Shown here one piece after another: positions 34,970 through 64,000 of a DNA stretch of 64,000 nt (position 1 is the first letter of the stretch; each line of letters opens with the position of its first letter). Origin of the DNA: Sphingomonadales bacterium. Lineage in GTDB: Bacteria > Pseudomonadota > Alphaproteobacteria > Sphingomonadales > Sphingomonadaceae. Location: NCBI GenBank assembly GCA_027483465.1, contig JAIXUQ010000067.1:1-64000 (forward strand). The letters run 5' to 3'. The notes beneath the pieces are model-generated. The model saw only the letters and a list, made by a program, of their open reading frames with translations. It did no database searches and was not told the origin of the DNA. The position numbers were made by a program, and so were the translations under genes.

Positions 34970-40271
<5,302 letters not shown>

Positions 40272-40275
<4 letters not shown>

Positions 40276-40544
40276 CCGATGCGCCACCGTTCGTCTGCGA
40301 CATCTGGCCACAGGGTGTGGCAAACGTCGTTATGGGGGCGCAGGGCAAAGTGACGATTTTGCTGCGATGGGCAGGAAATGTTGCTTTTCTGTCATGCGCT
40401 GCACTAACAGGTCTGCTAAAGCCGGTGCCGCTGGCTTTGTCAGGGAATCGCAGGGTCATCCCGCAGGCGCGGCGGGGCATGGCCATGGTGACCGCGCCGG
40501 TTTGCTGCAGCCAAGCGCAGGGTGCAGCAGGCTATGGTTCTTGA
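40272..40544 (+). CDS. Doubtful 90-aa frame between bchM and puhA
   Basis: An open frame starting at an ATG that overlaps the bchM stop (ATGA), the usual sign of coupling in this operon. The first 35 or so codons have a coding-like bias; the rest does not, and the product (MTDAPPFVCDIWPQ...) matches nothing I know. It occupies the place where lhaA stands in other phototrophs but shows no LhaA features. It may be non-coding DNA holding the puhA promoter. Confidence 0.25.
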
Positions 40545-40559
40545 GGGGAGATGCCTCGC

Positions 40560-46219: not shown

Positions 46220-47188
46220 GTGGCCCTTGACGCCCTTTTGCAGCCGGTGGTGCTGTTCTTCTTGCTCGGAGCCTTGGCAGCCCTGGTCCGTTCCGATCTT
46301 GCGATCCCGGAAGCGGTGGCAAAGGGCATTTCCCTTTACCTCATGATGTCGATTGGGCTGCGCGGCGGTGGCGAAGTGAGTGAAAGCGGCTTCACCCATG
46401 ATATGTTGATGGCAGGCGGTGCCGGGTTGGCGCTCAGTTTCCTGCTGCCACTTCCAGCCTTTTGGCTGCTGCGCAAAGTTGGCCAGCTGGATCGCACCAA
46501 CGCCGCTGCGGTGGCCGCGCACTATGGCTCGGTGAGCGTGGTCACTTTCGCCACAGGTTCGGAAATTCTCCGTCAGGCCGGCATGGCCCCGGCGGGCTTC
46601 ATGGTGGCGGTGCTAGCTGTCATGGAGACCCCGGCGATCATCACGGGCTTGCTGCTGGCGCGGGCCCAATCCGCCGGCAGCTTGGCACCCCGTGGCGGGC
46701 TTTTGCACGAGACCTTCCTTAATGGCTCCGTGATCTTGCTGCTGGGCAGTTTTGTCATCGGGCTGGTTGCCGGCAAACCCGGCATGGCGCCCATTGCGCC
46801 AGTGTTTGATGTGCCATTCCGCGGTATGCTGTGCATCTTCCTGCTCGACATGGGCCTGATCGCCGCGCGGCGTTTGCTTGATCGGCGTGCATTGGGTGCG
46901 CGCACCGCGCTGCTGGCGTTGCTCTTGCCGCTCATCAACGGCACGCTTGGCGTGGTCATTGGTGTTGAGTTGGGACTAGGCGCCGGTTCGGCAGCAGCGC
47001 TCGGCATTTTGGCTGGCTCCGCCAGTTACATTGCCGTGCCGGCCGTGATGCGGCTGGCGCTTCCCGCCGCTGATCCCGGCCTCTATCTCGGCATGAGTCT
47101 GGCGGTTACCTTTCCGTTCAACCTGACCATTGGCATTGCCTATTATGGTTGGCTGGCCGCTCACGTCTGGCCATTGATCCGGGGATAG
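46220..47188 (+). CDS. sbtA: SbtA-like sodium-dependent bicarbonate transporter
   Basis: A 322-aa inner-membrane protein with about 10 TM helices in two inverted repeats. The conserved GLRGGGEVSESGF and ALAVMETPAIITGLLLA-type sequences are typical of SbtA (formerly DUF897). GTG start with GGAG upstream. Cyanobacterial SbtA (about 370 aa) imports HCO3- with Na+; proteobacterial relatives are shorter. It is 6 bases before an SbtB/PII-like gene, which supports the call. Confidence 0.88.
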   Translation: MALDALLQPVVLFFLLGALAALVRSDLAIPEAVAKGISLYLMMSIGLRGGGEVSESGFTHDMLMAGGAGLALSFLLPLPAFWLLRKVGQLDRTNAAAVAAHYGSVSVVTFATGSEILRQAGMAPAGFMVAVLAVMETPAIITGLLLARAQSAGSLAPRGGLLHETFLNGSVILLLGSFVIGLVAGKPGMAPIAPVFDVPFRGMLCIFLLDMGLIAARRLLDRRALGARTALLALLLPLINGTLGVVIGVELGLGAGSAAALGILAGSASYIAVPAVMRLALPAADPGLYLGMSLAVTFPFNLTIGIAYYGWLAAHVWPLIRG

Positions 47189-49928: not shown

Positions 49929-49936
49929 GGTCTGCC

Positions 49937-49984
49937 AAAAAAGTGTTGGGCGGGTTGGCGCAGCGCGAAGCCAGCCCGTCCTTT
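49937..49984. terminator. Bidirectional terminator between TonB receptor and injection-system operon
   Basis: A 12-bp imperfect stem (GGGCGGGTTGGC at 49948-49959 with GCCAGCCCGTCC at 49970-49981, two G-T pairs) is flanked by AAAAAA on the left and TTT on the right. It reads as a terminator for the receptor (+) and, on the other strand, with a TTTTTT tract, for the leftward operon. Confidence 0.7.
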
Positions 49985-52788
49985 CACTCGAACAGGATTT
50001 CCACGCGGCGGTTGCCAGTGGGCGTTGTGGCACCGACATTCTCCTGGTTGCCCATGGCTTCCACCCGCACCATCTGGGCTGGCACGCCCAACCGTACCAG
50101 TTCGGCCTCGATCGCGGCAGCTCTGCGCTGGCTCAGGGCCAGTTGCTGTTGCGGTGTACCGGCGCCATCGTCATGCCCGCGCACCACCACGGTCTTGCCA
50201 GTGGTGCGCTGCTGGTCGGCCAGTTCCTTCAGCATGGCCGCCACATTGGCATTGTTGGCCAGGCGGCCAACGAGGCTGCCCAGTTCAAAACCCAGCTCAG
50301 CCTTTTTTTCGCTCTTCGGCCCGGGGGACATGATCAGGAACAGCTCAAGATCGCCGGCGCGTACGGGTTCCCGTTCATCCAACAGCAGCTCCCGGCGGGT
50401 AATGCCCGCACTTGTGCCCAGATGTTGGCCATTGAACCAGATTGGCCGCCCGGTCTTTTCGTCAGTGCCAAACACGAGCGCGCCCCGCACGCGGATACGA
50501 CACAATACCGGGCCTGCATCGGGAAAGGCCCATCCCAGCCGCTTGAGCTCGTCGGACAGTTGGCCGGTGACACGACTGCCAAAGCCGTGACGCAGGGCTG
50601 ATTGCAGAAACAGCCGTGTCAGCCGGTTTGGGCTCCAGACGATATCGCCACCACTGATCTTGACCTGACCAGCCAAGCGCGTGGTGCGGGTGGCGAATGG
50701 CTGGGTAAAGCCGGATTGTACTGCCGACGTGCCCGCGGCTTCCAACCAGTGTCGCTTGTCCGGATCCGTGGTCGGGTAGGGTAGATCAAGCGCCACCTCT
50801 ACCAGCGGATCATCAGCCCGTGGCTGGCAATCCAGGCTCTTTGCGTCGGTAGCGAAAACGATGTTCTCCAGGATATCGACAGCATTGATGATCAGGCCGT
50901 TGAGGATGAGCTTCTCGTCCACCAGATCGATGGGCTTGGGCCCACCGGTCAGTCTGATCTGGCGGATACAGATGCTGGGTGGTTTGCGGTCGTCAAGGGC
51001 GGCGCACAGCCGTTCCAGGGCATCCTGCACCGTGTTTGCCGGGGCCAGCGTCGGACAGTTTCCCGGGGGCTGAAATGACGTTTGCCCGGCACTGTCGAAC
51101 CGGGCGCTGAATTGCACGGCAGGTGTCGCAGCCGGCTGCCCGGCCTCCAGCAGCACTGCCTCGATCCGGTGCGAGTCTCCCTGGCGGCCTGCATCAATGG
51201 CCCAGTTCACGCTGCACAGACCATCCATGCCGGTGATCGCCTCGCGGCCTTGCCCCGCCTGCACCATTACGCCATCCACCTGCACCGAGGGATGGCCAAC
51301 CGGCACCTGCCAACGGACGCGGGCCCCTGCAACTGGGTTGGCACCGCGCATCACGGCGACGCGCAAGGCGTGCGGCAGCGGCCGGAAGCTGCCCGGGCCG
51401 GCGTGCGCAGCGAACAGCGATTGGCCATCACCGCCACGGTACAGCAGCGCGCGATCGCTAAGGCTGGCAAAGGCGACACGGCAATCAACAGTGCCTGCTG
51501 CGCCCGCGGCGCTGGCGATGGCCAGCGGTGCATAGCGCCACGGTGGCCCCATCGGCGGCAGTGCTTGCGGGTTGGGCGTTTCGATATCAGGCCAGGCAAT
51601 GCTGCCATCGGCGCGCACGGCGGCGCTCCACCAATCGCCACGGCGCAGGCGGGCACCGGCTTGGGCGGCAATCTGGATTGCAATGCCGTCTCCCAGGTCA
51701 AAACTGCCGCCGGCTGCTGGCACCACCCGCACGCCCTCGCCATCGGGCCAGGCATCCCACAGCCGCAGATACCAGCGGCCGTTGCCGTTCACCCCGGTGG
51801 CGGCAATCGCCCCGGCCGCGGCCTCCACCAGTTGCACGCTGTCATCGTCCGCCTCGCCAATCCGAAACAGCCGGGTGCTGGCCATGGCTCCGCTGGCGTC
51901 AATATCGTCACCTTGCCGAACCAGTTCTGCCCATGCGCCCGGCGCGAACCAATTCAGCGGATCGAGCGCCGGCGGTTGCACGCTCACCCGTGTCCCGTTC
52001 ACGCCTGAAACACGCACCATCAGGCTGCCATTGCGCCGAGAAAACTTCAGCCGCAGCCCATCGATGCCAAAGCGCGGATCGTGTGGACCCGGGCTGTCCG
52101 CCAGCGCAATGCCGCCATCGACTTCAATCCGGTAAAGGAGGTTCTCAAACCGACTGTGCCCGCCAGTTGGGGTGAGCGAGCACGGATCGGCCGCCGGGGG
52201 TGCAACCGGCAGCGAGAAGGCAAGCCGGCCGCTGGAAGCGACAGACATGGCGATCCAGGCCGGATGAGCCATCACCGTCTCGCATGTTGGCGCGGGCACC
52301 CCCGGCAGTGGCACCGGTACGACCTGCCAATCCACAATCGCACGGCCTGATGCCTGCGCATCTCCCAGCGCCACATCGGTCAGTCCGGGCTCTTCGGCTG
52401 GATCAACATGGCGAACCAGTGCCCGCAGCGCCACGGCGAACGCGCCGGGGGCAATGGCACCGGCCCAAGGGTTGGGCTGATTGGCCAGCGTTGCCGGTGC
52501 GGCATTCACCACCTGCCAGCCATCCAGATAGGCTGTGCCAGCCGCAATGGTGATGCCCGCGCCGCCGCCCGCAACGGCAAAGCCATTGGAGCCGCCTGGC
52601 ACCAGCAGTCGTCCGGGGCTCCCAAGCATGTGAGCGTCGGCGCTTTCCAGCCGGCCCAGCAGCAGGGCCGCGCCATCGTTCACATCGGTATCAAGCAGCA
52701 CCTGCCCCTGCCGCGCCACCACAGAACGCAACGGGCGGGATTCCCGCACCGGAGCATGGGGACGGCTGGCATCATTGCGCATGGTCAT
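49984..52788 (-). CDS. Large CIS-cluster protein with N-terminal DUF6519-like and C-terminal OmpA domains
   Basis: Last gene of the contractile injection system operon, 934 aa, no signal peptide. The N-terminus has RPLRSVVARQGQVLLDTDVN, matching the DUF6519-type 'QGRVQLDADWNE' start found in tail-associated proteins, then a carbohydrate/beta-sandwich-like middle. Residues 840-934 form an OmpA-type peptidoglycan-binding domain: VVVRGHDDGAGTP, LALSQRRAAAIEAELVRLG, and terminal NRRVEILFE. It could tether the particle to the cell wall. Domain naming for the N-terminal part is by pattern only; the OmpA call is strong. Confidence 0.8.
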   Translation of the reverse strand: MTMRNDASRPHAPVRESRPLRSVVARQGQVLLDTDVNDGAALLLGRLESADAHMLGSPGRLLVPGGSNGFAVAGGGAGITIAAGTAYLDGWQVVNAAPATLANQPNPWAGAIAPGAFAVALRALVRHVDPAEEPGLTDVALGDAQASGRAIVDWQVVPVPLPGVPAPTCETVMAHPAWIAMSVASSGRLAFSLPVAPPAADPCSLTPTGGHSRFENLLYRIEVDGGIALADSPGPHDPRFGIDGLRLKFSRRNGSLMVRVSGVNGTRVSVQPPALDPLNWFAPGAWAELVRQGDDIDASGAMASTRLFRIGEADDDSVQLVEAAAGAIAATGVNGNGRWYLRLWDAWPDGEGVRVVPAAGGSFDLGDGIAIQIAAQAGARLRRGDWWSAAVRADGSIAWPDIETPNPQALPPMGPPWRYAPLAIASAAGAAGTVDCRVAFASLSDRALLYRGGDGQSLFAAHAGPGSFRPLPHALRVAVMRGANPVAGARVRWQVPVGHPSVQVDGVMVQAGQGREAITGMDGLCSVNWAIDAGRQGDSHRIEAVLLEAGQPAATPAVQFSARFDSAGQTSFQPPGNCPTLAPANTVQDALERLCAALDDRKPPSICIRQIRLTGGPKPIDLVDEKLILNGLIINAVDILENIVFATDAKSLDCQPRADDPLVEVALDLPYPTTDPDKRHWLEAAGTSAVQSGFTQPFATRTTRLAGQVKISGGDIVWSPNRLTRLFLQSALRHGFGSRVTGQLSDELKRLGWAFPDAGPVLCRIRVRGALVFGTDEKTGRPIWFNGQHLGTSAGITRRELLLDEREPVRAGDLELFLIMSPGPKSEKKAELGFELGSLVGRLANNANVAAMLKELADQQRTTGKTVVVRGHDDGAGTPQQQLALSQRRAAAIEAELVRLGVPAQMVRVEAMGNQENVGATTPTGNRRVEILFE

Positions 52789-55163
52789 GGCCGGTTCCTC
52801 CGGTTGGCCGCAGCGGTGCTGCGGGTGTCGTCGATGATGCCGGCGGCCAGCCCCACGGCGAGCGATTCGGCAAAGAGCCGCCGCACATTGGCCAGGCGCA
52901 AGCCCTCGGCACTGCGGGCAAAGGCGCCCATCTCGGCATCGCCCTCGCCCCCCAACCGCAAGCCAGGGCTGGCCAATGGGTGCAGCATCGCCACGCTCGG
53001 CTCGTCCAAGTCAGTGTCAAGAAAGCGCGGCGCCACACCCAGACGTACCGCCAGCGCCTCGCTTGCCAGCAGTGGGCTGCCCTTGGCAGCGGCGGCCGCA
53101 CTGAGCGCAAGATCGGGCTGGCAGCGGAAGCGCCGCGGCACCTGGCTGTCGGCTGGAACATGGGAGTAGCGCACGCAGCCGACCTGGGTGCGGGCCACAG
53201 TGACGGGTTGGGTGAACAGGATGTTGGTGGCCTCAAGCGACTTCACGCGCACCGGCCCGATCAGGGTGACGTTGGCCAGATCCGCGTCCAGGGCGGGTGT
53301 ATCCAGCACCTGGTTGGGGGAGCCATCGCGCGCCAGCACAGTGTCCCGGATGCTGATGCGGCCAGTGGCATTGACCTGTGGGACCCGCACCCGGCCCGAA
53401 ATGCAATCCGAAAGCCGCAGCGTGCCGCCGGCCAGTGCGGTGGTCACCTCGATGCCCGGCGCATTGCCCGGTGCCCGCGCTGTGCAGTGGCGCAACCACA
53501 GATCGGAAACGGCGCTGCCCGAAAGGCGCAGCCCGGCAGCCAGCCACAGCCCGTCAAGCACAATCCGCCCTGCCCGTCCACCTGCGGGCGGGGCTGCGAC
53601 AGGCAGCAGGCGCAGCGGCACATCAATGATCGCCATGCGGTCTCGCCGCACGATATGGCCATGACGGGCGGGATCATCCGCCACGCCCGGCCGCACCACA
53701 CGCGGTCGCCATTGTGCGGCAATTATATGCAACTCGCTGTCGGGCCGAGTGTTGACAAGAATTTCCACCGCTCCTGCCTCACGGTCGCAGCGGGTACAAA
53801 TCAGCAGACCGCGCGGCCAGCCACCGCCGTGCTGGTTCCAATCGGCCACGGCATCGGCCAAGCTGGGCACGCGCCGCACCTGATCGGTGGGTGCACCATT
53901 GCCCGGCTGGCTGGAATCGATGATGCGAATGAAATGCGCCAGTTCCGGCGTGTCCACGATGTCGAAAGGCACGTCATCGCTGTTGCGTTCCTGCGGTCCG
54001 GCGCCAATGGCACGGCCGCGCCCGCTGGCATGGGCAACACGCACCCCAGTCACTTCTGCAGCACCGGCCGGCAGGCCCAACCGCCCGGTCACTGGATCAA
54101 TCACACATTCCACCGGACCCCCATCGGCTTGATCAAGTGGCCGGCCGGCAGGCAGGGCTTCAAGATTGGCGATCCTGATGGCGGCAGCGTGTACACGGCG
54201 CCACGTACCACCGCGCGCAACGAACACTGTGAACGGGGCATCATCTGCAAACCAGGGTTCGCCGGGCAGGCGGGGCAGGCGATTGGCCGCTGCGGCCTGC
54301 CGGCGTTCGCGACACTCCAGGTGCAATGGCAGCCGCGCGAGCCGACCGGGCAAGGCTTGATCCGTGTTGCGCACGTTGGAGCTGGCGCTGCGTCGATCCG
54401 GGTTGAACAGCCGGATCACGCCGCCTGGCATGGCCGCCAATTGCCAAAGACCTGGCATGTTGCCCCACGGCGCCGCTGCCGGGACCCCGGCCAATACGGC
54501 ATCGTCCAGCCCGTCTCCTGGCGGCGCTGCCCAAGTTGGTACGACACCGCGCCGAACATGCACGCCCACATGCGGCACATGATGCCGCCCACTGGGGCCG
54601 TGTGTCCGCCCGGAAATCCCGCGCAGATTGGCCAGCCGAGGCAAGCGATCCAGTGCGGTGCCGGCTTGACCAGCCGTCTCGCCGAGCCGCAATCTGGCCA
54701 CGCCAGGGCGGTCGGCGCGCACGTCAATCAGATTTTCGGTGCGTGCCAGCCGCTGAAAATACTCCACCACCATCACCGGCAGCCCGCTGACATCGCCAGC
54801 CAACCCTTCCAGCGCAGCGGCCGTGCCCTTGCCTGCCCGGCGCGCCAGCGTGTTGGCAACATACGCCCGCAGATCATGGCCGGCCCCAGCCGGCAGCGGC
54901 GCCAATGGCGTGGCTGCCACCACTTCCGCGAGATCATCAAGGCCAGCCGCATCGGCGGTTTCAACGAACATGGCATCGGCCATGGCATCCAGCGCATCAT
55001 CAAGTTCCACAATCCCGCTGGCCATGACGGCCACCAGTGCGGCCAAGGGATCGCCTTCTGCTGCATCGCGGCTGCGCAGATGGGCAGGCAGCAGGCCAAA
55101 CAGCCGCTGGCGGGCGGTTTCCAGGCGCGCGCTGGCCAGCAGATCATCGTCAATATCGCTCAT
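52785..55163 (-). CDS. Tail/baseplate protein with beta-helix C-terminus
   Basis: A 792-aa structural protein. Residues 1-150 (FGLLPAHLRSRD, DALDAMADAMFVETADA) resemble the phage tail gpI/Afp12-like wedge domain. The middle part contains the block GRTHGPSGRHHVPHVGVHV. The C-terminal third is a run of short beta-strands of beta-helix type, with GCVRYSHVPADSQVPRRFRC. ATG 55163 overlaps the upstream stop. It may form a wedge plus receptor-like fibre. No catalytic residues are recognised. Confidence 0.75.
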   Translation of the reverse strand: MSDIDDDLLASARLETARQRLFGLLPAHLRSRDAAEGDPLAALVAVMASGIVELDDALDAMADAMFVETADAAGLDDLAEVVAATPLAPLPAGAGHDLRAYVANTLARRAGKGTAAALEGLAGDVSGLPVMVVEYFQRLARTENLIDVRADRPGVARLRLGETAGQAGTALDRLPRLANLRGISGRTHGPSGRHHVPHVGVHVRRGVVPTWAAPPGDGLDDAVLAGVPAAAPWGNMPGLWQLAAMPGGVIRLFNPDRRSASSNVRNTDQALPGRLARLPLHLECRERRQAAAANRLPRLPGEPWFADDAPFTVFVARGGTWRRVHAAAIRIANLEALPAGRPLDQADGGPVECVIDPVTGRLGLPAGAAEVTGVRVAHASGRGRAIGAGPQERNSDDVPFDIVDTPELAHFIRIIDSSQPGNGAPTDQVRRVPSLADAVADWNQHGGGWPRGLLICTRCDREAGAVEILVNTRPDSELHIIAAQWRPRVVRPGVADDPARHGHIVRRDRMAIIDVPLRLLPVAAPPAGGRAGRIVLDGLWLAAGLRLSGSAVSDLWLRHCTARAPGNAPGIEVTTALAGGTLRLSDCISGRVRVPQVNATGRISIRDTVLARDGSPNQVLDTPALDADLANVTLIGPVRVKSLEATNILFTQPVTVARTQVGCVRYSHVPADSQVPRRFRCQPDLALSAAAAAKGSPLLASEALAVRLGVAPRFLDTDLDEPSVAMLHPLASPGLRLGGEGDAEMGAFARSAEGLRLANVRRLFAESLAVGLAAGIIDDTRSTAAANRRNRP

Positions 55164-57652
55164 GGCGATCGCTCCTGAAACCCAATCGCATCGGCATCGA
55201 TGGCAAGCAGACCAGCAAGTGATACCGTCCATTGCCCATTCGCGCCCTTCACTGACTGTGGGCCGGGGCTCAGCAGCCGGCCCTGATCGGGCCCAACCGA
55301 GCCGAGGCTGAAACGGGTCAGCGCGCAATGGCGAACCCCCGGCGTGCCCTGCACGGTGGCAAGTACGGCGGATGCCGCCAGGCCCTCGGCAAACCCGCGC
55401 GCGGCCGGACCGAAGGCGGCTGCCAGCCGGCCGCGCACGGCCTCTTCCACGTCTGTTCGCAGCAAAGCCGGATCAATGGCCAACGCCAGGTTCACCGTGG
55501 CCACCAGTGGCTGAAAGCCCTGAACGGTCACTGCCGCGCCCGGCAGTCCAGCCGCCCGCAGCGCAGCCGCCAGCGCCCGGCACGCATCGGCGCCCGGAGG
55601 CGCCAGGCGGCTGCTGGCAATGGTGACGACCACGATCCGGCGCATGCCCAGCATCACTTCGCTGGCCAGGGCCTTGCCAATGCCGCGCCAGCCTTCGGCA
55701 AAGGCCTGATAATCAGAAAGCGTGACCACGCGTTCAAAGCTGCGCAGGCGGCGTGGCGCAGCGCTACGCATCACTGCCAGCGACTCGGCATCGCTGCCGC
55801 CATCGGCTGCCATTGGGTTCGTCACGCTGCGAACGCCCGGCACTGGCGCCAGCAACGTGGTCAACCGGCCAGCCGCCACATTTCCAGCAGCGCCGGCGCC
55901 GTGGCGATACCGGGCGGTTATGGCTGCACCGCTGGGCAGGCGCCCGGCAAACAGCAACTCCGCCTTGCCATCCTCGCGCGGTGTGAGCATCGCGGCCGTC
56001 GCCGTTTCCGGCAGACCATGCAAATGTTCGGCAATCTCGTAGCGACGTCCGCCAACCCGCACCTCCAGCGCCGGGGCAAAGCCGGCATTGGTGGCCGCCG
56101 GCACCATGCTGACCGGCCCTCTGCTCAGCACAACGCGCTGGCCGCTGCGGTTGGCATCACCCATGCCCAGCAGTTCGGCGCCGGCCGCACTCGATTCGCC
56201 ATGGCTGGCCGCAACAACATTCCCAAGTACGGAAAGGCCCACGGCGAGGAAGGGCGTCTCGACCGGCGCAGTGAAGATCAACAATGTCGTGCCATCTGCA
56301 CGCTGTTCGGCGCGCAGCAGAGCCAAGGCCTCTTGCGCTGGTCCCGTCGCTGTGCGGCCCGTGAGTAGCAGCCTGCGGCCGCTGGGCAGCGCATGTCGCC
56401 CTACAACTGCAAGGCGATCCGGGGTGGCGGCATTGGGCAGGCGCTCATCCTGTGGGCGGGCCAGCAGGGCTTCACGGGCGGTTTCAAGCAAGATGGATGT
56501 GCTGCGCACGGCCGCCGGCGGATAGGTCGGCGGTTGCTGCTTGAAATCCAAACCTTGAAAAGTGGTGCGGGTCACCCGGCCAGAAAGCCCAAAGCCACTG
56601 CGGCCACGCTCTGTGGTCGATACCACGCGCAGCGGCAGGGCCTCGTTTGGCCCGACCAATACTGCAAGGCGGCCGAGCATCAATTCAAGCCGACCGCCAT
56701 CGATATCGATAACGTTGCCGGCGGCGGGATCAGCATCAAGAGTGAGATTTCGCCATTCCGGTGGAATGGCCGCGGCATTGATCGCTGCCACCACCGGATC
56801 AACAACGCCGGCCGGTCCGGGCTTCAGCAGCAGCAGCGGATCGGGTGCAGCGGCACCAAAGGGCGTTGCCTGTCGGCCAAGCACGATGACTTTGCGCCGG
56901 TCGTGCCCAGCCGCTGCTGCACCACCGACCAGCGGCCGATGCTCTATCAGGCTGATCCGGCTGTGGGGTGGATCGGCCTCGGGCCGCCGATCCACGGCAT
57001 CGGCGCGCGCCAGCACCCAACCGGCACCATCGGCAAACAGCAGATAATCGCCTGGCTGGATAAGCGTGTTGCCGGCAACCTCAATCATGGCGGTTGCCAG
57101 GTTGACCGCCGGCACAGCCTGCGCCAGCACCGGCTCCAGCCTGGACCACTCAGGCCGCGCCACCAGTTCGGCCTCGGTTTCGAAATTGAGCGGCAACTCG
57201 CCAGGTGCGGGCACCGAAGCGACCCGGTTGCCGGCGGGGATGACAACCTCTGCCGGCGCGCCGGGAAAGCCATCCAGACTGAAAGCCAGCCAAGTGGTTG
57301 CCGACAAGGCCGGCCGCGGCCGATAGCCGGTGAGCGCCACCAGCGCGGTGACTGAAGCGCGGTCCTGGCTGCGCGCCAAGGTCCCATCGTCAGCCAGTTT
57401 TGCGGCATTCCAGGCCAAAACGTGAAGGCTGCCTGCAAACGCATCCAACAGCGCGATCGCAGGGTCGTCTGCCGCCCGGGTGGTGAGCCCGGCCAAGGGC
57501 CGCCGCCCGCCGATCGTCACCCGGCTGATGCGGCCCAACAGGCGCTCACGCACGGCGCCATGCGCCCAGCGCCGGGCATCAAGTGGCCCGGGTGGCGGGG
57601 CCGAGCCTGCACAATCCGGGCAAGTGCCGCAGGCGCATACAGCGTCGCTCAT
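55160..57652 (-). CDS. Putative baseplate assembly protein (baseplate J-like, second)
   Basis: An 830-aa protein of the large baseplate component family found in eCIS (Afp11/12-type). The N-terminal CxCGTCPDC cysteine pair may bind metal. It has LNLDADPAAGN-like beta segments and a C-terminal J-like part: NPMAADGGSDAESLAVMRSA, RVVTLSDYQAFAEGW, and VQGTPGVRHCALTRF. It builds the wedge ring that holds the spike. Coupled on both sides. Confidence 0.85.
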   Translation of the reverse strand: MSDAVCACGTCPDCAGSAPPPGPLDARRWAHGAVRERLLGRISRVTIGGRRPLAGLTTRAADDPAIALLDAFAGSLHVLAWNAAKLADDGTLARSQDRASVTALVALTGYRPRPALSATTWLAFSLDGFPGAPAEVVIPAGNRVASVPAPGELPLNFETEAELVARPEWSRLEPVLAQAVPAVNLATAMIEVAGNTLIQPGDYLLFADGAGWVLARADAVDRRPEADPPHSRISLIEHRPLVGGAAAAGHDRRKVIVLGRQATPFGAAAPDPLLLLKPGPAGVVDPVVAAINAAAIPPEWRNLTLDADPAAGNVIDIDGGRLELMLGRLAVLVGPNEALPLRVVSTTERGRSGFGLSGRVTRTTFQGLDFKQQPPTYPPAAVRSTSILLETAREALLARPQDERLPNAATPDRLAVVGRHALPSGRRLLLTGRTATGPAQEALALLRAEQRADGTTLLIFTAPVETPFLAVGLSVLGNVVAASHGESSAAGAELLGMGDANRSGQRVVLSRGPVSMVPAATNAGFAPALEVRVGGRRYEIAEHLHGLPETATAAMLTPREDGKAELLFAGRLPSGAAITARYRHGAGAAGNVAAGRLTTLLAPVPGVRSVTNPMAADGGSDAESLAVMRSAAPRRLRSFERVVTLSDYQAFAEGWRGIGKALASEVMLGMRRIVVVTIASSRLAPPGADACRALAAALRAAGLPGAAVTVQGFQPLVATVNLALAIDPALLRTDVEEAVRGRLAAAFGPAARGFAEGLAASAVLATVQGTPGVRHCALTRFSLGSVGPDQGRLLSPGPQSVKGANGQWTVSLAGLLAIDADAIGFQERSP

Positions 57653-60153
57653 CGGCCGCCTCCCATGCTGATGGCGAGCCGCCCCCGTTCGGGCAGGCTG
57701 GGATCATCTGCCAGCTCCAGCACCTCGGCACCGCGGGGAACAATGGCCCCGGCAGCCAATTCACCGGCTGGCAAGCGTCCAAATCGCTGGAATCGCGTGA
57801 TTTCCACGCTCTGTACCCCCTCAACCGCCATCACCGCTGCAACCAGAGCCGAGAATTGCAGCGCGGCGCCAAAGCTGAACCTGTCGGGATGGAAGAACCC
57901 AGGTTGTCCGCCATTTCCGACCGGGCGCAAGGCGGCGCGCACGCGGCGGCCGACCTCGCTGGCCAGCCTTCCCGGCTGGGCGCAAATGAACAGGCCGATA
58001 TCCAGCGGCACCGGCACGGCGCCGCGCACCGCCACATCCATCGCCATCGGTCGATAGCGGTCCAGGTGGGCAGCAATCTCAGCCCGGAATGCGGCTGTAA
58101 CCGGCAAACCACCAACGCGATCGACATACACCAGCATGGTCTGGAAGGCACCTGTCCAGCGGGGCACGGCTAGAGCCGCCGATACCTCAGGGTGCCGGCA
58201 CGCCACCTCGATCCAGTCGGCTGACGTGACGGCCCGCTGCTGGCGCCGATAGGCATGGGGGGCGTTGCGCCGCACGCTGGCAGTGAGTTCCGGCGCTGCC
58301 CCGCCGCTGGCCGGCAGCGGATTGCTGATCCTCAGCCGGCCCGCGGCCAGGCCAGCTGCGAGGGCATCGCTCACCACCGCATGACCCAAGGCATCGCTGC
58401 CGATATTGCCTGCGTTGCCGCTGCCAAAACGACCCGACACAGCGAAAAGACCGCCCGGTTCTGGCGCCAGCCCGGCCAGGCCATCGCCAAAGCGAAGCGT
58501 TGCCCGCCCCTCATGGCCGGCTTCCACGACGAAATCACGGCTGAAAGGGCCCGATTCGAGCAGGTCGGCTCTGGCCGTCCAGTTGGCAAACACGTCGATC
58601 AGCCGCAGCTCGGGCAAGGCCTGCGCCGCATCGGTGGCACACAGGCCTGCGGCTGCGGTTCCAGGCCGGGCAGCCGGCATGGCCCGGGCCAGATCGGCGC
58701 GGCTCAGGACCGGGCGCCAGCGTTCGCCCGCTATGGGCGCCGGCGGATCAAGCCGCGGTGCCAGCGCCGCCATGTCAGCAGTAGGCAGGCCAAGCGCTGA
58801 GGCTGGTGGCAGCGAGACGCCATGATCAGCCAAGAGAATGTTGCCAGCCGCCTCGGCCCAGATGGCGCCTGGCCCGGCCAGGGCGGCCACATCGGCGGAT
58901 GGGGCCAGCACCAGATCAAAGCCCAAGGCATCCGCCTGATCCCAGGCCACGTCGATCAAGACTGTGCCCGGCGGTGCCAGCGGATCGATCACCGGTGTCA
59001 CCGCGGTTAACCGCACCACCTGGCGATGGTTGGGCCGCGCATCGGCAGCTTGCCCGGTGATGGGCGACCGCAGTTCGGCCAGCAGCAACAGATCGCCCGC
59101 TGCCAACATGCCGTTGCCGCCGCTGCCATCCACCAGCGTGGCGGCAGTGGCGCCCGCCGGCAGCCGGCATTCGCCATCGGACCAGTTGTGAAAGGCGATG
59201 TGGCTCTGCCAAGCCCACAGGGCCTGATCAGTGATCGTTTCAAACGCCAATGGTGCCCCGGCCAGCAGCAGCGGCCAGCGGCTGGCAGGTACCACTGCCG
59301 GCAGATCGGCATGAGTCAGCAGCAGCGGCGTGGCGGCCGGCAACAGCATGCCATCAGCGGCAAGACCAAGGCCGGCAACGAAATCGGCCCGGATGAAGGT
59401 GCGTGCGCTGGCGCCTTCACCGGGACGATAACTGACCAGTCGGGCATGGCGGGCAATGGACGTGCGGCTGCGGGCTGTGCCGATGAAGGCTTCTGTGCCG
59501 ATCCAGTCCAGGCGGTAAGACAGCCGATCGCCTTCCAGCGCGAGCGCCTCCACCAGCGTGGTGGTGAGATCTGCCGGCATCTCCTCGTCGCCGGCAAAAC
59601 CAGGAATCAGGCCGGCCAGTCGATCCAGCAGCAGTTGGCGCAAGCCTGGCCAGTCCCGGGCGCGATAATCGAAATCGGGCGCGGGCCAATCCGGATCGGC
59701 ATTGCCGCAGTCTGGCTGGCAATCGCTGTCACTGGGGCAATTGATCTTGAAATTGATCGTCACCGTCGCCAATCGAGGGTCCATGAAAGGCGGCGGCTGG
59801 GCCTGATCCGGCCCAGTCACGATCTCCAACTGGTAGTCCGAGAAATCCGTTGGCTGGCCGCCTGCTATCGTCACCACCCAGGCGCTGACATTCCCGTTGC
59901 CATCAAGCTGGTTGGCTACGGCTTGCGGCCGTGGTGGCGCAAATCGCACTCCACCGGTGATCCGGATATTGGCCGTGGTGATACTGGCCTGGACCGGAGG
60001 CAGCGGATTGACCAGCACCAGCGTGATCAGGCTGGGCAGCGCGACCGTGGCGCCGGCCGCGACCTCGGCAAAGTCGATCCCGGTCAGATCCGGCCGCGCC
60101 TTCAGGGCCCGGCGGCGCCCTTCATCGCAGCAGACATAGCGGGCGCCGCTCAT
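57649..60153 (-). CDS. Putative baseplate assembly protein (baseplate J-like, first)
   Basis: An 834-aa protein. The N-terminus YVCCDEGRRRALKARPDLTG followed by IDFAEV is a hallmark of the large baseplate assembly proteins next to eCIS gp25 genes, as is INFKINCPSDSDC. The C-terminal part contains a J-like DWIEVACRHPEV and a wedge-type end. It is expected to be the Afp11 counterpart that contacts gp25. Confidence 0.87.
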   Translation of the reverse strand: MSGARYVCCDEGRRRALKARPDLTGIDFAEVAAGATVALPSLITLVLVNPLPPVQASITTANIRITGGVRFAPPRPQAVANQLDGNGNVSAWVVTIAGGQPTDFSDYQLEIVTGPDQAQPPPFMDPRLATVTINFKINCPSDSDCQPDCGNADPDWPAPDFDYRARDWPGLRQLLLDRLAGLIPGFAGDEEMPADLTTTLVEALALEGDRLSYRLDWIGTEAFIGTARSRTSIARHARLVSYRPGEGASARTFIRADFVAGLGLAADGMLLPAATPLLLTHADLPAVVPASRWPLLLAGAPLAFETITDQALWAWQSHIAFHNWSDGECRLPAGATAATLVDGSGGNGMLAAGDLLLLAELRSPITGQAADARPNHRQVVRLTAVTPVIDPLAPPGTVLIDVAWDQADALGFDLVLAPSADVAALAGPGAIWAEAAGNILLADHGVSLPPASALGLPTADMAALAPRLDPPAPIAGERWRPVLSRADLARAMPAARPGTAAAGLCATDAAQALPELRLIDVFANWTARADLLESGPFSRDFVVEAGHEGRATLRFGDGLAGLAPEPGGLFAVSGRFGSGNAGNIGSDALGHAVVSDALAAGLAAGRLRISNPLPASGGAAPELTASVRRNAPHAYRRQQRAVTSADWIEVACRHPEVSAALAVPRWTGAFQTMLVYVDRVGGLPVTAAFRAEIAAHLDRYRPMAMDVAVRGAVPVPLDIGLFICAQPGRLASEVGRRVRAALRPVGNGGQPGFFHPDRFSFGAALQFSALVAAVMAVEGVQSVEITRFQRFGRLPAGELAAGAIVPRGAEVLELADDPSLPERGRLAISMGGGR

Positions 60154-60521
60154 CGTATGCGCTCCAGGGTCAGTTGGTTGCTGCTGCCATCATTGGCTAG
60201 CCGGTAATCGACGGTGATGATGAGCACCCCGCGATCCTCGTCAAAATGGCTGGCCAATCCTTCAAGTGCCAGCCACCGGCCCAATTGCTGGCTGATGCTC
60301 GCGGCCAGCGCGGCTTCGAGAGCGAACCCGGCCGGGCCATTGCCGGCGCCAAACAGCATTTGCTGTGCAGGGCTGCCGAAATCATTGCGCATCACCCGCT
60401 CACCCGGGATGGTGAGGATAAGCTGTTCCAGCATCTGCCGCACATGCGCGGCGCTGCCCGGTGTCACTGCCAGGCTGCGGCCATCGTTACCCGGACGAAA
60501 GGGAAAGGCCAGCCGGCTCAT
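60150..60521 (-). CDS. GPW/gp25 family baseplate protein
   Basis: A 123-aa baseplate wedge protein related to phage T4 gp25/P2 gpW. The conserved core LILTIPGERVMRNDFGSP, the FAL helix and C-terminal VDYRLANDGSSNQLT are typical. It joins sheath to baseplate. ATG 60521 is chosen to begin MSRLAFPFRPG, just before the domain; it overlaps the upstream gene by 4 bases. Confidence 0.93.
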   Translation of the reverse strand: MSRLAFPFRPGNDGRSLAVTPGSAAHVRQMLEQLILTIPGERVMRNDFGSPAQQMLFGAGNGPAGFALEAALAASISQQLGRWLALEGLASHFDEDRGVLIITVDYRLANDGSSNQLTLERIR

Positions 60522-60862
60522 GTTGCGATCACCCTTGCCTGGCAAACGAGGACACTGGGCGGCCCCCCGGGGATCTGCTCTGCCGAAAGACACAGCGCCA
60601 CACTGGGATTGATCAGCACCGGTTGGCCCAGAACAGTCACACGCGTGGCGGCGACCATCCAGCGTGTGGAGATGCATGGCTGCGGCTTCGGCCCCCCAGG
60701 GGTGGGAATTTGAAACGGGCAGCCGGCGACCGGGCCGGGGTCGCTGATCACCGCCACCGGCCGGCCTGAAAGCAGCACGCGTGGAACCGGTGCGGCGAGG
60801 TTGAGGCTGCCGCCATGTGGGCACATCACCACAGCCCCGGCATGAAGAACCGGACCTGGCAT
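60518..60862 (-). CDS. PAAR-like spike tip protein
   Basis: A 114-aa protein beginning MPGPVLHAGAVVMCPHGG, followed by a small-residue-rich beta region with CPFQIPTPGG and several cysteines/histidines that may coordinate metal at the tip. It occupies the Afp10 position between spike and gp25. Its start overlaps the gp5-like gene's stop. Confidence 0.8.
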   Translation of the reverse strand: MPGPVLHAGAVVMCPHGGSLNLAAPVPRVLLSGRPVAVISDPGPVAGCPFQIPTPGGPKPQPCISTRWMVAATRVTVLGQPVLINPSVALCLSAEQIPGGPPSVLVCQARVIAT

Positions 60863-61374
60863 CAGGTTACCACCAGCGCGCCGGCGTTCACCGTCACGCT
60901 TGGCCCAGCCAGCGCAATGCTGGCGCCTTGGCCATTGCTGATGACAATCCCGGCCGCGCCAATGACGATGCTGGCGCCAGTAGGCGTGGTGATCATCAAC
61001 TGCGCGGCCGGATTGTCCGACATGGTGAGCATCACGCCCGATGTTGTCTGCAGATGGATATTCGGCGTGATCGGTGACGGCCCTGCCATGGCCAGCACAG
61101 GCACCATGCCCGGCTGCGGCCAAAATCCGCCCGACCAGATCGGGTAATCCGGATCGCCTGCTTCAAATTCCACCCACACCTGCGATCCAACGGGCGGCAG
61201 CGCGATGATACCGGCATTGGGTCCCGCCAGCGGCACGCAGGGCGCGGCCCAGGTTGACGGAAACAGGCCGTACCGATCCCCCAATTGCACTTGGATGCGG
61301 CCCTGCAGCTGGGGATCGACATTGTTGATCACCGAAGCGCGATACTTGCCGAAAAAACGGGGGCCCTCGCTCAT
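60862..61374 (-). CDS. Phage spike (gp5/gpV/VgrG C-terminal part)-like protein
   Basis: A 170-aa protein with an OB-fold start (FFGKYRASVINNVDPQLQGR, IQVQLGD) and the motif PPVGSQVWVEFEAGDPDYPI, typical of gp5/VgrG/gpV. A repetitive beta-helix region follows. It lacks the gp27 part, which is supplied by the next upstream gene; the two genes equal one VgrG. Confidence 0.9.
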   Translation of the reverse strand: MSEGPRFFGKYRASVINNVDPQLQGRIQVQLGDRYGLFPSTWAAPCVPLAGPNAGIIALPPVGSQVWVEFEAGDPDYPIWSGGFWPQPGMVPVLAMAGPSPITPNIHLQTTSGVMLTMSDNPAAQLMITTPTGASIVIGAAGIVISNGQGASIALAGPSVTVNAGALVVT

Positions 61375-62525
61375 GCCGGCACCTGTGGGACTGTGGGCAG
61401 CAGGCCGTCGCGGCTCAGCTGAAAGCTTTGCGACCAGCGTCCGCGCGCCAGACTATGGGTCACGGAGCGGACATGCCATAGCCCGTCATGCGCGAGCCCG
61501 GCGCCACGCACGCCCACCAATTGGCGGGCATCCAATGGCCGGCCATAGCGTGTCAGGTCTATCTGGCCGGTGGCGGTCACCGGATCGGTGCGGGCACCGG
61601 CAGCCAACAGCGCCTCAAGCACTTCGGGGGCGGTCTTGCGTTCGGTTTCCAGTAACCGTAACCGAGACGGGATCAGCGGCCGGGCCGCCAGTGGCGGCTT
61701 CAGCAGGCCGATGCTGGGCATCGGCAGCGGAATGGAGACTGGCCCGGCTTTGACGTGGGCATAGGTCAATTCCGCGGCAGTGCCATCCATGCTGAACTGC
61801 ACGCTGGCTGCATTACCGGCTGCGCCCAAATCGATGTTGATGGCCGGTTGCGGGATGCCGACCCGGATCGGTGGACCCCAATAGACTGTGTTGGTCCCAG
61901 GCGCCGGCCCAGGGGTGGCATAGAATTCATGGCCGGCCGCCGCTGCCAGCGCGGTTGCATATTGAAAATCGGTGCCCTGCTGCTGGGCGTAACGCTCGGT
62001 CGGGCTGGCGGCCATCGAAAATGGGGAGGGAATGGTGGCAGGGATAACGCCAAACATCGCATATTTGGCGAGCATCGCGGCCACGCGGGCGAATGGGGGC
62101 AAGGCCGGCCACGGCATCCCGGTAAAGTCGATCAAATCCATGTAACCGGTCACATCTTCGCCAGTGAGCGTTAGGCGATGTTCTCCCGGGCGGTTGCTGG
62201 CGGCCACCTCCTGCTTGCGGATCGGGCCATCGGCCAATACGTGCGGAATGCCATTCAAGGTCGCCACCAGAATCACCCGGATCAGCGGATCGAAATAGCC
62301 GGCCGGCAACAGCTGCGTGGCAATGGGCGATGTGCCGGAATAGACAAGTTCCAGCTGAAATCCCGAGCGCTGGCCGATGGCGCGGGTGATCTGTGCCCCT
62401 TCAATCGCCTGCACCACCGAGGCCGGCACTGGTGCCACAGCCACCGGCCCCATCAGCAGCGACAGGCTGATATTGGCCAGGCTGGGCCCGGTGCCATCCA
62501 GCAGGCTGAGGGGCGCGCTAGCCAT
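61371..62525 (-). CDS. gp27/gpD-like spike hub protein
   Basis: A 384-aa protein corresponding to the gp27 half of VgrG/Afp8. It shows IEGAQITRAIGQRSGFQLEL and LADGPIRKQEV, plus GEDVTGYMDLI in the first domain, and a second domain from about residue 180 with TDFQYATALAAAAGHEF (late control D-like). It forms the hub on the tube. Coupled to the gp5-like gene (ATGA). Confidence 0.87.
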   Translation of the reverse strand: MASAPLSLLDGTGPSLANISLSLLMGPVAVAPVPASVVQAIEGAQITRAIGQRSGFQLELVYSGTSPIATQLLPAGYFDPLIRVILVATLNGIPHVLADGPIRKQEVAASNRPGEHRLTLTGEDVTGYMDLIDFTGMPWPALPPFARVAAMLAKYAMFGVIPATIPSPFSMAASPTERYAQQQGTDFQYATALAAAAGHEFYATPGPAPGTNTVYWGPPIRVGIPQPAINIDLGAAGNAASVQFSMDGTAAELTYAHVKAGPVSIPLPMPSIGLLKPPLAARPLIPSRLRLLETERKTAPEVLEALLAAGARTDPVTATGQIDLTRYGRPLDARQLVGVRGAGLAHDGLWHVRSVTHSLARGRWSQSFQLSRDGLLPTVPQVPA

Positions 62526-62832
62526 TGCTGGCCACTTCCAGCGGCAGTGGCAGCAACAGGCGGCGGCCAGACGCCCGCGTCAGGCTGTCGGGATCATCGC
62601 TCCCGCTGGCATCGGCTATGCGCCAGTAGAGGAGCGGATCGCCATAGCCGGCGGCCGCCACCTGATCGAGCCGGTCGCCCTCGCGGCAAACATGATGGGC
62701 AAAGGCGCGATAGTGGCCGGTGTCGGGGATAAGGCGCCGCCCGAGGCAGTTTATCTCCCGGCCATCAGCAAGGGTGACGCGTTGCTGGCTGATCCCGTGA
62801 TAGCGGCTGTTCAAGGCAAAATTGTCGGTCAT
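62518..62832 (-). CDS. LysM / tail protein X-like CIS protein
   Basis: A 104-aa protein with a LysM-type C-terminal half: VCREGDRLDQVAAAGYGDPL, then LYWRIADAS, as in phage tail protein X and Afp7-associated LysM modules. It probably bridges tube and hub. ATG 62832 overlaps the upstream stop (TGATG). Confidence 0.8.
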   Translation of the reverse strand: MTDNFALNSRYHGISQQRVTLADGREINCLGRRLIPDTGHYRAFAHHVCREGDRLDQVAAAGYGDPLLYWRIADASGSDDPDSLTRASGRRLLLPLPLEVASNG

Positions 62833-63455
62833 CACACCCCCGTCAGGCCCAGGCGGCCAAGGCTGACGCCGGCCCGGCCGGCTGCGGTTTCGCGGGCGCG
62901 CAATGCTTCGAGGAACAGGGCGGCGCCCTTGCTGCCCGGTGCCAGGTCATCGCTGGTCAGCACCCTGACCGAGATCGACACACGGGCGCGGATGGGTTGC
63001 AGACTGGTGTCGAACATCTCTTCCACCAGGCCAATATCCGTCAGCCGCACCGGCAGAATGCGCCGAGGCCCCAGCGCCAGCAGCACCAGTGGTGCCGGTG
63101 CCGGCAGCAATTCCAGCGTGCCGCTGGCCGCCAGCCGGATTTCGGCCTCCAGGCTTGCGGCGGTGGGGCTGATGATGGTTTCCAGCGCGGCCAGATCGGC
63201 CGTGATGTTGCGGGGCGGGCTGTGGTGCGTGCCATCAAATTCGGCTTCCAGCTTGATGGTTTCCACTGGCGGCCCGGCCAGCCGCAGCGCCTCCAGCCGG
63301 TCGCCGCCTTCGCTGCTGGCGCGCGGCACCAGGCTCCGGGTGAGGGTGTCGGGATTGAACTGGAATGCGATCGACCGTTGCAGTGTCCGCCCGGCGGCGT
63401 CGAACAGGATGAAGCCGCCCGAAAGGGTTGCAGGGGAGAGCGGTGATGCACTCAT
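62832..63455 (-). CDS. CIS tube-associated protein (Afp7-like)
   Basis: A 207-aa protein of the contractile-injection-system tube/LysM family. The N-terminus SIAFQFNPDTLTRSLVPRAS is the familiar 'FQFNPxTLxRS' motif, followed by VETIKLEAEFDGT. The typical C-terminal LysM is here separated as the next gene. Likely connects inner tube with the hub. The start overlaps the upstream stop. Confidence 0.88.
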   Translation of the reverse strand: MSASPLSPATLSGGFILFDAAGRTLQRSIAFQFNPDTLTRSLVPRASSEGGDRLEALRLAGPPVETIKLEAEFDGTHHSPPRNITADLAALETIISPTAASLEAEIRLAASGTLELLPAPAPLVLLALGPRRILPVRLTDIGLVEEMFDTSLQPIRARVSISVRVLTSDDLAPGSKGAALFLEALRARETAAGRAGVSLGRLGLTGV

Positions 63456-64000
63456 CAGCTCTTCTTCCCCCCGGTCACCACGTCCTTGACGATCTCGAGC
63501 GGATCGAAGGATTTGGGCTCATATTCGATGCTCGACAGATCGGGCAGCTTCAGGCCGTTGCGGCTGTAGACCAACTCGCCGATGCTGAGCTTGAATGTTG
63601 GCCCCAGCGGGCGCTTCATGCTGGCCACCGGATAGGTCCATTTGTGCTCGAACATGCCGCCAACCGCATAGATTGCGGCATCGAGATTGACGCCCAGTTC
63701 CACCTGCGGAGACATTTCAGCCCCCGCCTTCGCCTTGAAGATGAAGCCTTCGGCCTCGTTGTAGGTGGCTGTGGTGACAAACGCTGCCTTGCCCGGCAGG
63801 GACAGATTGGCGAACAGATCAACCCCGCCGCGCAGACCGGCCAGATCAAGCGCCACTGAAACGCCTAGCCCGGCACCAAACGTGCCCTTCAACTGCGCGT
63901 AGAACGGCGCCTCAAGCGTGGCGGTGGCGCTGGCACTGATCTGCGGATCCTGCTCGAAGGGAAACAATGATCCAGTGAACAGGATATCCTTCAGCACCGC
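63455..64000 (-). CDS. Unrecognised CIS-cluster protein, 5' part beyond the window
   Basis: An incomplete frame that stays open to the right edge; at least 181 residues are visible. It has many alternating hydrophobic/polar beta-strands (ATATLEAPFYAQLKGTFGAG, FIFKAKAGAEM) and a basic tail VVTGGKKS. A GTG at 63997 is in frame but the sequence before it is also open. It could be a large CIS structural or cargo-linked protein; no family is recognised. Confidence 0.6.
   Translation of the reverse strand, partial: AVLKDILFTGSLFPFEQDPQISASATATLEAPFYAQLKGTFGAGLGVSVALDLAGLRGGVDLFANLSLPGKAAFVTTATYNEAEGFIFKAKAGAEMSPQVELGVNLDAAIYAVGGMFEHKWTYPVASMKRPLGPTFKLSIGELVYSRNGLKLPDLSSIEYEPKSFDPLEIVKDVVTGGKKS

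What the first reader, a model, noticed from the sequence alone, without database searches (positions are those of the whole stretch)
49984..64000. eCIS-like contractile injection system operon next to a photosynthesis gene cluster
Ten leftward genes with overlapping starts and stops encode a tube-linked protein, LysM protein, gp27-like hub, gp5-like spike, PAAR-like tip, gp25, two baseplate-J-type proteins, a wedge/beta-helix protein and an OmpA-ended protein. Seen directly: the motifs and gene overlaps. Known: this order follows Afp/PVC-type systems and not tailed-phage order (no capsid, lysis or integrase genes). Inference: a chromosomal, host-maintained device in an alphaproteobacterium. 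Cyanobacteria have thylakoid-attached systems, so a CIS beside phototrophy genes is notable, though the link may be accidental.
Basis: partly seen in the sequence, partly recalled or inferred. Interest (0 to 1): 0.75.

Follow-up and report, generated by a model that had tools for sequence, protein, structure and literature searches.

The report
Injection-machine operon inside photosynthesis genes
A complete, intact set of genes for a phage-tail-like protein syringe sits inside the photosynthesis gene cluster of this bacterium; it is a known kind of machine that arrived by horizontal transfer, its place beside the photosynthesis genes looks accidental, and its one real oddity is a fibre protein that ends in a cell-wall-binding type of domain.

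Summary
The leftward operon continues on contig C65 and, through a 119-bp end overlap, on contig C48: 18 genes (49984-73510) including sheath, tube, Pvc16, AAA+ ATPase and eCIS_core. It is an extracellular contractile injection system (eCIS) of the DUF6519 ("eBAP5") subtype, in the same order as one on a Streptomyces plasmid. In a sheath+tube tree it groups with Actinomycetota, Pseudogemmobacter and Novosphingobium copies, far from a copy in its own genus: horizontally acquired.

It lies cleanly between a TonB-receptor gene and bchI. Four of eleven genus relatives fetched have only 97-132 bp there. None of 20 other eCIS-bearing genomes, 10 of them phototrophs, showed photosynthesis genes beside the eCIS in the stretches read, so the link to phototrophy looks accidental and the thylakoid-CIS analogy is not supported.

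The unusual part is the last gene. Its DUF6519 fibre-type protein carries an extra ~105-aa OmpA/Pal-like domain, seen in none of six close homologues and in no other of 26 homologue entries scanned (C-terminus in hand for 18). Peptidoglycan is thus its likely docking ligand (inferred). New variant of a known kind.

The parts
49984..52788 (-). fibre-type protein, DUF6519 (eBAP5) part plus C-terminal OmpA/Pal-like domain (OmpA part about 49984-50340)
   Evidence: Pfam PF20129 2.2e-11 and PF00691 2e-12; extra C-terminal ~105 aa absent from 6 close homologues; OmpA in 1 of 26 homologue entries scanned
52785..55163 (-). baseplate wedge / tail protein I-like (792 aa from ATG)
   Evidence: TIGR02242 6.3e-4, below its cut-off; PHROG baseplate wedge 1.6e-4; 46.7% identical to the gene in the Streptomyces plasmid operon
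55160..57652 (-). baseplate J-type protein 2
   Evidence: PF04865 4e-14, TIGR02243 3.8e-46
57649..60153 (-). baseplate J-type protein 1
   Evidence: PF04865 7.8e-7, TIGR02243 4.4e-58
60150..60521 (-). gp25 baseplate wedge protein (start chosen by the position of the match; the listed GTG ORF runs to 60824)
   Evidence: PF04965 1.2e-8
60518..60862 (-). PAAR-like spike tip, 114 aa
   Evidence: label by reading the translation; a gene of similar size sits at the same place in the Streptomyces plasmid operon; no PHROG hit
60862..61374 (-). spike, gp5/VgrG OB-fold type
   Evidence: PF04717 1.9e-20
61371..62525 (-). hub, gp27-like (label by position)
   Evidence: no Pfam or PDB sequence hit; conserved position, 62.9% identical to the Streptomyces plasmid gene
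62518..62832 (-). LysM-like small baseplate protein
   Evidence: motif by reading; PHROG baseplate wedge 7.9e-4; relatives
62832..63455 (-). CIS_tube family protein
   Evidence: PF19266 E 0.008, below cut-off; relatives
63455..64000 (-). 3' part of the 1075-aa eCIS_core (DUF4157) protein with HNH-like motif; continues on contig C65 to 66682
   Evidence: PF13699 1.5e-28, HNH 0.047, below cut-off; HNH-like residues conserved in 8 of 8 aligned
47634..49928 (+). left flank: TonB-dependent receptor gene of the photosynthesis cluster, whose stop codon marks the insertion border
   Evidence: PF00593 7e-32; blastn border at 49929 against G001
49929..49990 (.). GC-rich hairpin between the convergent TonB-receptor gene and eCIS operon, possible bidirectional terminator
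   Evidence: -29.1 kcal/mol, z -3.45

Best explanation
It is a complete eCIS operon of the DUF6519/eBAP5 subtype. It came in by horizontal transfer as a self-contained block of about 24 kb and 18 genes, and settled between a TonB-receptor gene and bchI inside the photosynthesis gene cluster. Shown: gene content, order, intact frames, borders, phylogeny, absence at the same site in close relatives. Inferred mechanism: sheath and tube assemble in the cytoplasm on a baseplate (hub, spike, PAAR tip, gp25, two J proteins, wedge) with the help of the AAA+ ATPase and the Pvc16 cap. The eCIS_core protein is cargo or a loading factor. The particle acts after release or lysis of the producer. The fibre-type protein ends in an OmpA/Pal-like domain, so docking is most likely to peptidoglycan, either on a lysed Gram-negative sacculus or on the producer's own wall. 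The neighbouring photosynthesis genes are an accident of insertion.
For: Sheath on C48, tube PF06841 2.7e-43, AAA, Pvc16 and eCIS_core. Exact 119-bp overlap of the C65 and C48 ends, found full length at only those two places. Clean borders against relative G001; TonB-receptor-to-bchI gap 97-132 bp in G001, G015, G019, G007 versus 23,880 bp here. Same 18-gene layout on Streptomyces plasmid NZ_CP108040.1; 15 of 16 proteins compared match it at 40-84% identity. Tree: clade of 8, support 1.0, distances 0.42-0.54 against at least 1.19 to every other tip; own-genus copy G002 at 1.54. 10 of 20 other eCIS carriers have BchL, none with photosynthesis genes in the stretches read beside the eCIS. OmpA domain: PF00691 2e-12; Foldseek hits to Pal, OprF and T6SS TagL peptidoglycan-binding domains; Asp of GH-x-D and Arg of RRA aligned to Pal.
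Against: No expression or particle data. Murein binding is inferred from a domain whose model is modest (mean pLDDT 60.7, single sequence). The DUF6519 protein is conserved over residues 1-820 across phyla, so it may be a fixed baseplate part rather than an exchangeable receptor-binding fibre. The Pro-rich gene product (69495-70259) matched nothing in the Streptomyces plasmid or the 80 named loci by tblastn. Clade order inside the 8 is weak (0.444 for G000 with G236 and L091). The C65-C48 join rests on an end overlap, not on long reads.
Confidence: 0.75

Rival explanations
1. The eCIS is functionally tied to phototrophy: co-regulated with bchIDO through the shared 295-bp divergent region, or anchored to photosynthetic membranes like the Anabaena thylakoid CIS.
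For: The sheath and bchI genes diverge from one 295-bp region; 10 of 20 eCIS-bearing relatives are phototrophs; CIS-like particles of the phototroph Roseiflexus were absent from anaerobic cultures (PMC12998442, passage). A crude hydropathy scan does not exclude membrane contact: 8 of 16 proteins have a 19-residue mean above 1.6 (highest 1.89).
Against: No eCIS-bearing relative had PGC genes in the stretches fetched; where eCIS and bchL share a contig they are 124 kb or more apart (7 genomes). No TGT-N12-ACA site in the divergent region; 9 such sites in 80 kb against 7.9 expected. No sigma-70-type promoter match there. The fibre-type gene is DUF6519/eBAP5, not the eBAP4 crown of tCIS.
Confidence: 0.08
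2. A defective tailed prophage or R-type tailocin.
For: Sheath, tube and baseplate genes are of phage-tail ancestry; phage tube proteins match the tube weakly (6 of 50,697 phage records, at most 33.7% identity).
Against: No capsid, terminase, lysis or integrase model among the block and flank genes scanned. AAA+ ATPase, Pvc16 and eCIS_core are eCIS hallmarks. 80 of 80 named loci share sheath, tube and the next gene.
Confidence: 0.02
3. Assembly chimaera or contaminating contig.
For: The block spans two contigs of a draft genome of 118 contigs.
Against: Each insertion border lies inside a contig: left in C65 at 49930, right in C48 between sheath and bchI. The flanks align with G001, G015 and others. 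The 119-mer occurs full length at only these two contig ends. The gene crossing the join is an open frame; its relatives match from about residue 39 on, so they support the order sheath-tube-next gene (80 of 80 loci) rather than the exact joint.
Confidence: 0.04
4. The OmpA-like tail is not a wall-binding tip but an inert or structural fusion picked up at the cassette edge on insertion.
For: It sits at the very edge of the inserted block (49984-50340), is absent from close homologues, and the host has other OmpA-domain genes, best 41.8% identical.
Against: It is intact, in frame, keeps the Pal-type Asp and Arg and matches known peptidoglycan binders.
Confidence: 0.35

Closest known systems
eCIS of Streptomyces sp. 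NBC_00299 linear plasmid NZ_CP108040.1
   Same: 18 genes in the same order; 15 of 16 proteins compared match at 40-84% identity
   Different: On a plasmid typed as mobilizable, not in a PGC; its DUF6519 protein aligns to residues 1-821 and lacks the OmpA domain; the Pro-rich protein did not match; the PAAR-like and 67-aa genes were paired by position (the latter also by eye)
eBAP5 (DUF6519) eCIS subtype, PMC12923769 (passages seen)
   Same: DUF6519 protein encoded in the operon; clade rich in Actinomycetota
   Different: OmpA and peptidoglycan do not occur in that paper's main text; the C-termini it describes are beta-helix, lectin or hemagglutinin with macroglobulin shafts
Afp / PVC
   Same: Sheath matches Pvc2 1.1e-39 and Afp3 5.9e-34, tube matches Afp1 1.5e-4; Pvc16 and AAA+ ATPase present
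   Different: Single sheath gene, separate hub and spike, different gene order (Afp order recalled), no Afp13-type fibre seen; other solved sheaths (8bky, 9ezm, 8bl4) match better
Anabaena thylakoid CIS (tCIS), PMC8894136 (passages seen)
   Same: Tube relative (7b5h, 6.8e-13); producer is a phototroph
   Different: No crown-type (eBAP4) fibre among the Pfam matches; different eCIS subtype; membrane anchoring not settled here
T6SS TagL / Pal / OprF peptidoglycan-binding domains
   Same: Fold of the C-terminal domain
   Different: There the domain sits on envelope proteins; here it ends an eCIS fibre-type protein

Membership tests
eCIS | contractile sheath and inner tube genes in the operon | tested here: met
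   sheath C-terminal PF17482 9.4e-11, tube PF06841 2.7e-43
eCIS | baseplate set: gp25, J proteins, spike, PAAR tip | tested here: met
   PAAR-like by reading only
eCIS | AAA+ ATPase and Pvc16/DUF4255, with eCIS_core (DUF4157) | tested here: met
   PF00004 4.2e-21, PF14065 3.6e-30, PF13699 1.5e-28
eCIS | no capsid, terminase, lysis or integrase genes | tested here: met
   none among the operon and flanking genes scanned; not a scan of every ORF
eCIS | particles released and acting outside the producer | not testable with these tools
   needs microscopy
eBAP5 subtype of eCIS (PMC12923769) | DUF6519 fibre-type protein encoded in the operon | tested here: met
   PF20129 2.2e-11; the whole-genome scan with the same model missed this copy
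eBAP5 subtype of eCIS (PMC12923769) | groups with Actinomycetota-rich eCIS | tested here: met
   clade of 8, support 1.0, four Actinomycetota
thylakoid CIS (tCIS) | crown-type (eBAP4) fibres and baseplate extensions that anchor in a membrane | tested here: inconclusive
   the fibre-type gene found is DUF6519; no eBAP4 model and no dedicated membrane predictor was run; hydropathy scan ambiguous
type VI secretion system | TssJLM membrane complex | not tested
   no search for tss genes elsewhere in the genome; none among the operon's Pfam hits
tailed prophage or tailocin | phage head, packaging or lysis genes nearby | tested here: not met
   none among genes scanned
OmpA/Pal peptidoglycan-binding domain | fold and conserved Asp/Arg (role of these residues recalled) | tested here: met
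   PF00691 2e-12, Pal alignment, Foldseek
OmpA/Pal peptidoglycan-binding domain | binds peptidoglycan | not testable with these tools
   bench test

The most novel reading that the evidence does not exclude
An eCIS whose fibre-type protein has gained an OmpA/Pal tip is a murein-tethered injection device: it docks on peptidoglycan, as the TagL domain does for the T6SS, so particles stay on the wall of the lysed producer or strike wall-exposed Gram-negative neighbours. Its divergent region shared with bchIDO could time production to pigment synthesis.
Probability: 0.12. Interest if true: 0.75.

Novelty: new variant of a known kind. Interest (0 to 1): 0.4.

Why it matters
It gives a clean before-and-after picture of eCIS mobility: a full 18-gene device of a type shared with Streptomyces and Arthrobacter, dropped into a photosynthesis gene cluster with the empty site preserved in near relatives, and no integrase or transposase gene seen in the block. 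It also offers a testable receptor hypothesis (peptidoglycan) for an eCIS subtype for which I know of no identified target. It argues against reading function into the photosynthesis neighbourhood.

Tried and rejected
Light/redox control by PpsR-type sites: TGT-N12-ACA (motif recalled) is no commoner than chance and absent from the divergent region. Promoter or terminator scan of that region: nothing. Mobility signature: no direct or inverted repeat of 10 bp or more between 300-bp pieces at the two borders; ARAGORN's tRNA-Leu at 58673-58768 lies inside a J gene and has no Rfam match. Membrane anchor: only a crude hydropathy scan was run; 8 of 16 proteins pass 1.6 (cut-off recalled), highest 1.89, so the question stays open. 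PDB sequence search for the hub: nothing. Fold of the eCIS_core protein, done on the homologue in L085 (mean pLDDT 70.5, pTM 0.34): all-beta C-terminal half. Best PDB Foldseek hits are LptD and VDAC barrels, with TM-scores of 0.33 or less and rmsd 18 or more in the 50 rows shown; in the viral library the highest TM-score shown is 0.39 over 152 columns at E 0.11. Too weak to name. PADLOC hits of the ATPase to IetA/TRIP13 reflect the AAA fold.

Rows left out: the tree used 90 of 93 candidate relatives (L198, L129, L140 dropped for short sheath matches) plus the window; 7 of the 15 family carriers (G094, G028, G005, G085, G155, G141, G308) were never entered because they gave no sheath match.

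Papers: PMC12923769, PMC8894136 and PMC12998442 were seen as passages; others, including PMC8651086 and the rest, only in listings. Searches that returned 0 papers: 'contractile injection system' + 'photosynthesis gene cluster'; + 'aerobic anoxygenic phototroph'; 'eCIS' + 'bacteriochlorophyll'; 'eCIS' + 'OmpA' + 'baseplate'; 'contractile injection system' + 'OmpA' + 'tail fiber' + 'peptidoglycan-binding'. 'DUF6519' returned 1 paper.
Full report
Observation. The ten leftward genes are real. The window is contig C65:1-64000 of a 3.58-Mb draft genome in 118 contigs. The operon runs on to the end of C65 at 70912. A search of the genome for the sheath family hit contig C48, and the start of C48 overlaps the end of C65 by exactly 119 bp; this stretch is found full length only at those two ends (one further 42-base partial match at 81%). 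In joined coordinates (window numbering continued) the operon is: sheath 71471-73510, tube 70930-71451, DUF6760-like gene 70256-70924, Pro-rich gene 69495-70259, Pvc16 68738-69478, AAA+ ATPase 66879-68741, a 67-aa gene about 66679-66882, eCIS_core 63455-66682, CIS_tube type 62832-63455, LysM-like 62518-62832, hub 61371-62525, spike 60862-61374, PAAR-like 60518-60862, gp25 60150-60521, J 57649-60153, J 55160-57652, wedge 52785-55163, DUF6519-OmpA 49984-52788. The frames are open and most neighbours overlap.

Surroundings. Left of the block is a photosynthesis gene cluster: bchF, bchN, bchB, bchH, bchL, bchM, puhA, a Rubrerythrin-family acsF-type gene, a DUF3623 (puhE-type) gene, an aminotransferase (5-aminolevulinate synthase type), a bicarbonate transporter and a TonB-dependent receptor. 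Right of it, on C48, are bchI and bchD (Mg-chelatase types) and an alpha/beta hydrolase (bchO type). Gene names beyond the Pfam families are inferred. The rest of C48 (beyond about 6700) was not scanned with Pfam.

Insertion. blastn against G001 places the borders at 49929 and 73789, with 78 bp between the two matches in G001. I fetched the site for 11 of the 21 other genus genomes with a bchD match. Of these, 4 (G001, G015, G019, G007) have 97-132 bp between TonB-receptor and bchI matches, and 3 (G008, G002, G004) have 962-2275 bp of other sequence. In 3 (G021, G012, G016) the receptor was not found and bchI follows 1,970-4,232 bp after the aminotransferase. In 1 (G010) no left flank gene was on the fetched stretch. 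The slot is therefore variable within the genus. The island's GC is 0.668, between its left (0.608) and right (0.704) flanks.

Distribution. Tube hits: 16 of 298 family genomes and 5 of 385 class genomes (E at most 1e-30), own genome included in both. In the genus, 8 of 24 genomes, own included, have a sheath match. G002 carries a colinear eCIS about 759 kb from its bchL. For the 15 other family carriers I read up to about 18 kb on the sheath side and, where possible, a 20-kb stretch beyond the operon. Four were cut short by contig ends on the sheath side (G138, G202, G028, G126); for the far side G085 and G138 gave nothing and G144 only 1.8 kb. No PGC protein scored 80 bits or more except two 34%-identical aminotransferase matches. 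For the 4 class carriers the only hit was a 44-residue partial bchM match (E 1e-4, L196). Of these 19 plus G002, 10 of 20 have BchL. On the same contig the distances are 124 kb or more (G002, G278, G191, G224, G155, G308, G361). In 3 (G005, G085, G094) the two lie on different contigs, so there adjacency is excluded only for the stretches read. In 80 named loci (the best 80 of 582 relatives) no PGC protein matched at E 1e-10 and 70 bits; there mainly the sheath-side flank was tested, since 10 kb does not reach the other end of the operon.

Phylogeny. In a sheath+tube tree of 91 sequences the window copy falls in a clade of 8 (support 1.0) with Kineococcus, Arthrobacter, Kitasatospora, Streptomyces, Pseudogemmobacter, Novosphingobium and G236. 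Distances are 0.42-0.54 against at least 1.19 to all others. The sample is not even: the named loci were picked by tube similarity, and 7 family carriers without a sheath match were left out. Tube homologues occur on 17 of 72,556 plasmid records. The closest is a Streptomyces linear plasmid with the same 18-gene layout; 15 of 16 proteins compared match it at 40-84%, the Pro-rich one does not, and the PAAR-like and 67-aa genes were paired by position (the latter also by eye). Horizontal spread of eCIS subtypes is already described (PMC12923769, passages).

The last gene. DUF6519 is the eBAP5 baseplate-anchoring domain of eCIS fibres (PMC12923769, passages). Here it is followed by a C-terminal OmpA domain. 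Six homologues at 42-46% identity end without it, at about residue 820 of the window protein. Pfam was run on 26 entries: the window protein and 25 relatives. 25 of 26 match DUF6519 and 1, the window's, matches OmpA. Two entries (L189, L194) are one gene, and 8 entries run off the fetched stretch, so the C-terminus was in hand for 18. A genome scan with the DUF6519 model found 5 of 398 phylum genomes but missed the window's own copy, so that count is a lower bound. A single-sequence model of the last 138 residues has mean pLDDT 60.7 and matches Pal, OprF, YiaD and TagL peptidoglycan-binding domains. The sequence aligns to Pal with the Asp and Arg retained (their role in diaminopimelate binding is recalled).

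Mechanism. Shown: parts, order, intactness, borders. Inferred: cytoplasmic assembly, lysis-dependent release, murein docking, eCIS_core as payload. Within its clade the eCIS_core protein is not a variable cargo: long relatives (1053-1198 aa, starts uncertain) sit at the same place in seven other operons that I picked because they matched at full length. An HNH-like D-H...E...G...N.Q...N...G pattern is conserved in 8 of 8, though the window copy lacks a cysteine just before it that the others share. Pfam HNH is weak: 0.047 here, in 4 of 7 relatives with best 0.013. Elsewhere only the N-terminal eCIS_core stretch matches, for example in G002 and several of the 59 of 80 named loci with a hit.

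Verdict. A complete eCIS of a recognised subtype in an unusual place, with one domain fusion that I did not find in print in the searches named.

Noticed in passing
contig C65 63455-66682 (3' part in window 63455-64000): 1075-aa eCIS_core (DUF4157) protein with HELAH motif, HNH-like motif and (in a homologue's model) all-beta C-terminal half; long form conserved in eight operons across phyla, so a fixed component there rather than a variable toxin.
   Followed up: partly
window 49929 to bchI (joined 73806); L020-L026, L034, L036, L037: The gap upstream of bchI is a variable slot in the genus: about 100 bp in four relatives, 1-2.3 kb of other sequence in three, receptor gene missing in three.
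   Followed up: partly
window 46220-47185: A Na+-dependent bicarbonate transporter (Sbt_1, 3.9e-107) sits within the photosynthesis gene cluster.
   Followed up: no
window 26464-27993 and 39565-41336: bchM is followed directly by puhA, and a PUCC-family (lhaA-type) gene lies elsewhere on the opposite strand.
   Followed up: no
window 8748-14414: Bacterial alpha-2-macroglobulin-type gene, 1888 aa.
   Followed up: no
window 58673-58768: ARAGORN reports a tRNA-Leu (CAG) inside a baseplate J gene, without Rfam support; probably false.
   Followed up: yes
L103 and L120: Relatives of the eCIS tube, 81-82% identical, occur in archaeal MAGs labelled Methanosarcinales and ANME-2; binning error not excluded.
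   Followed up: no
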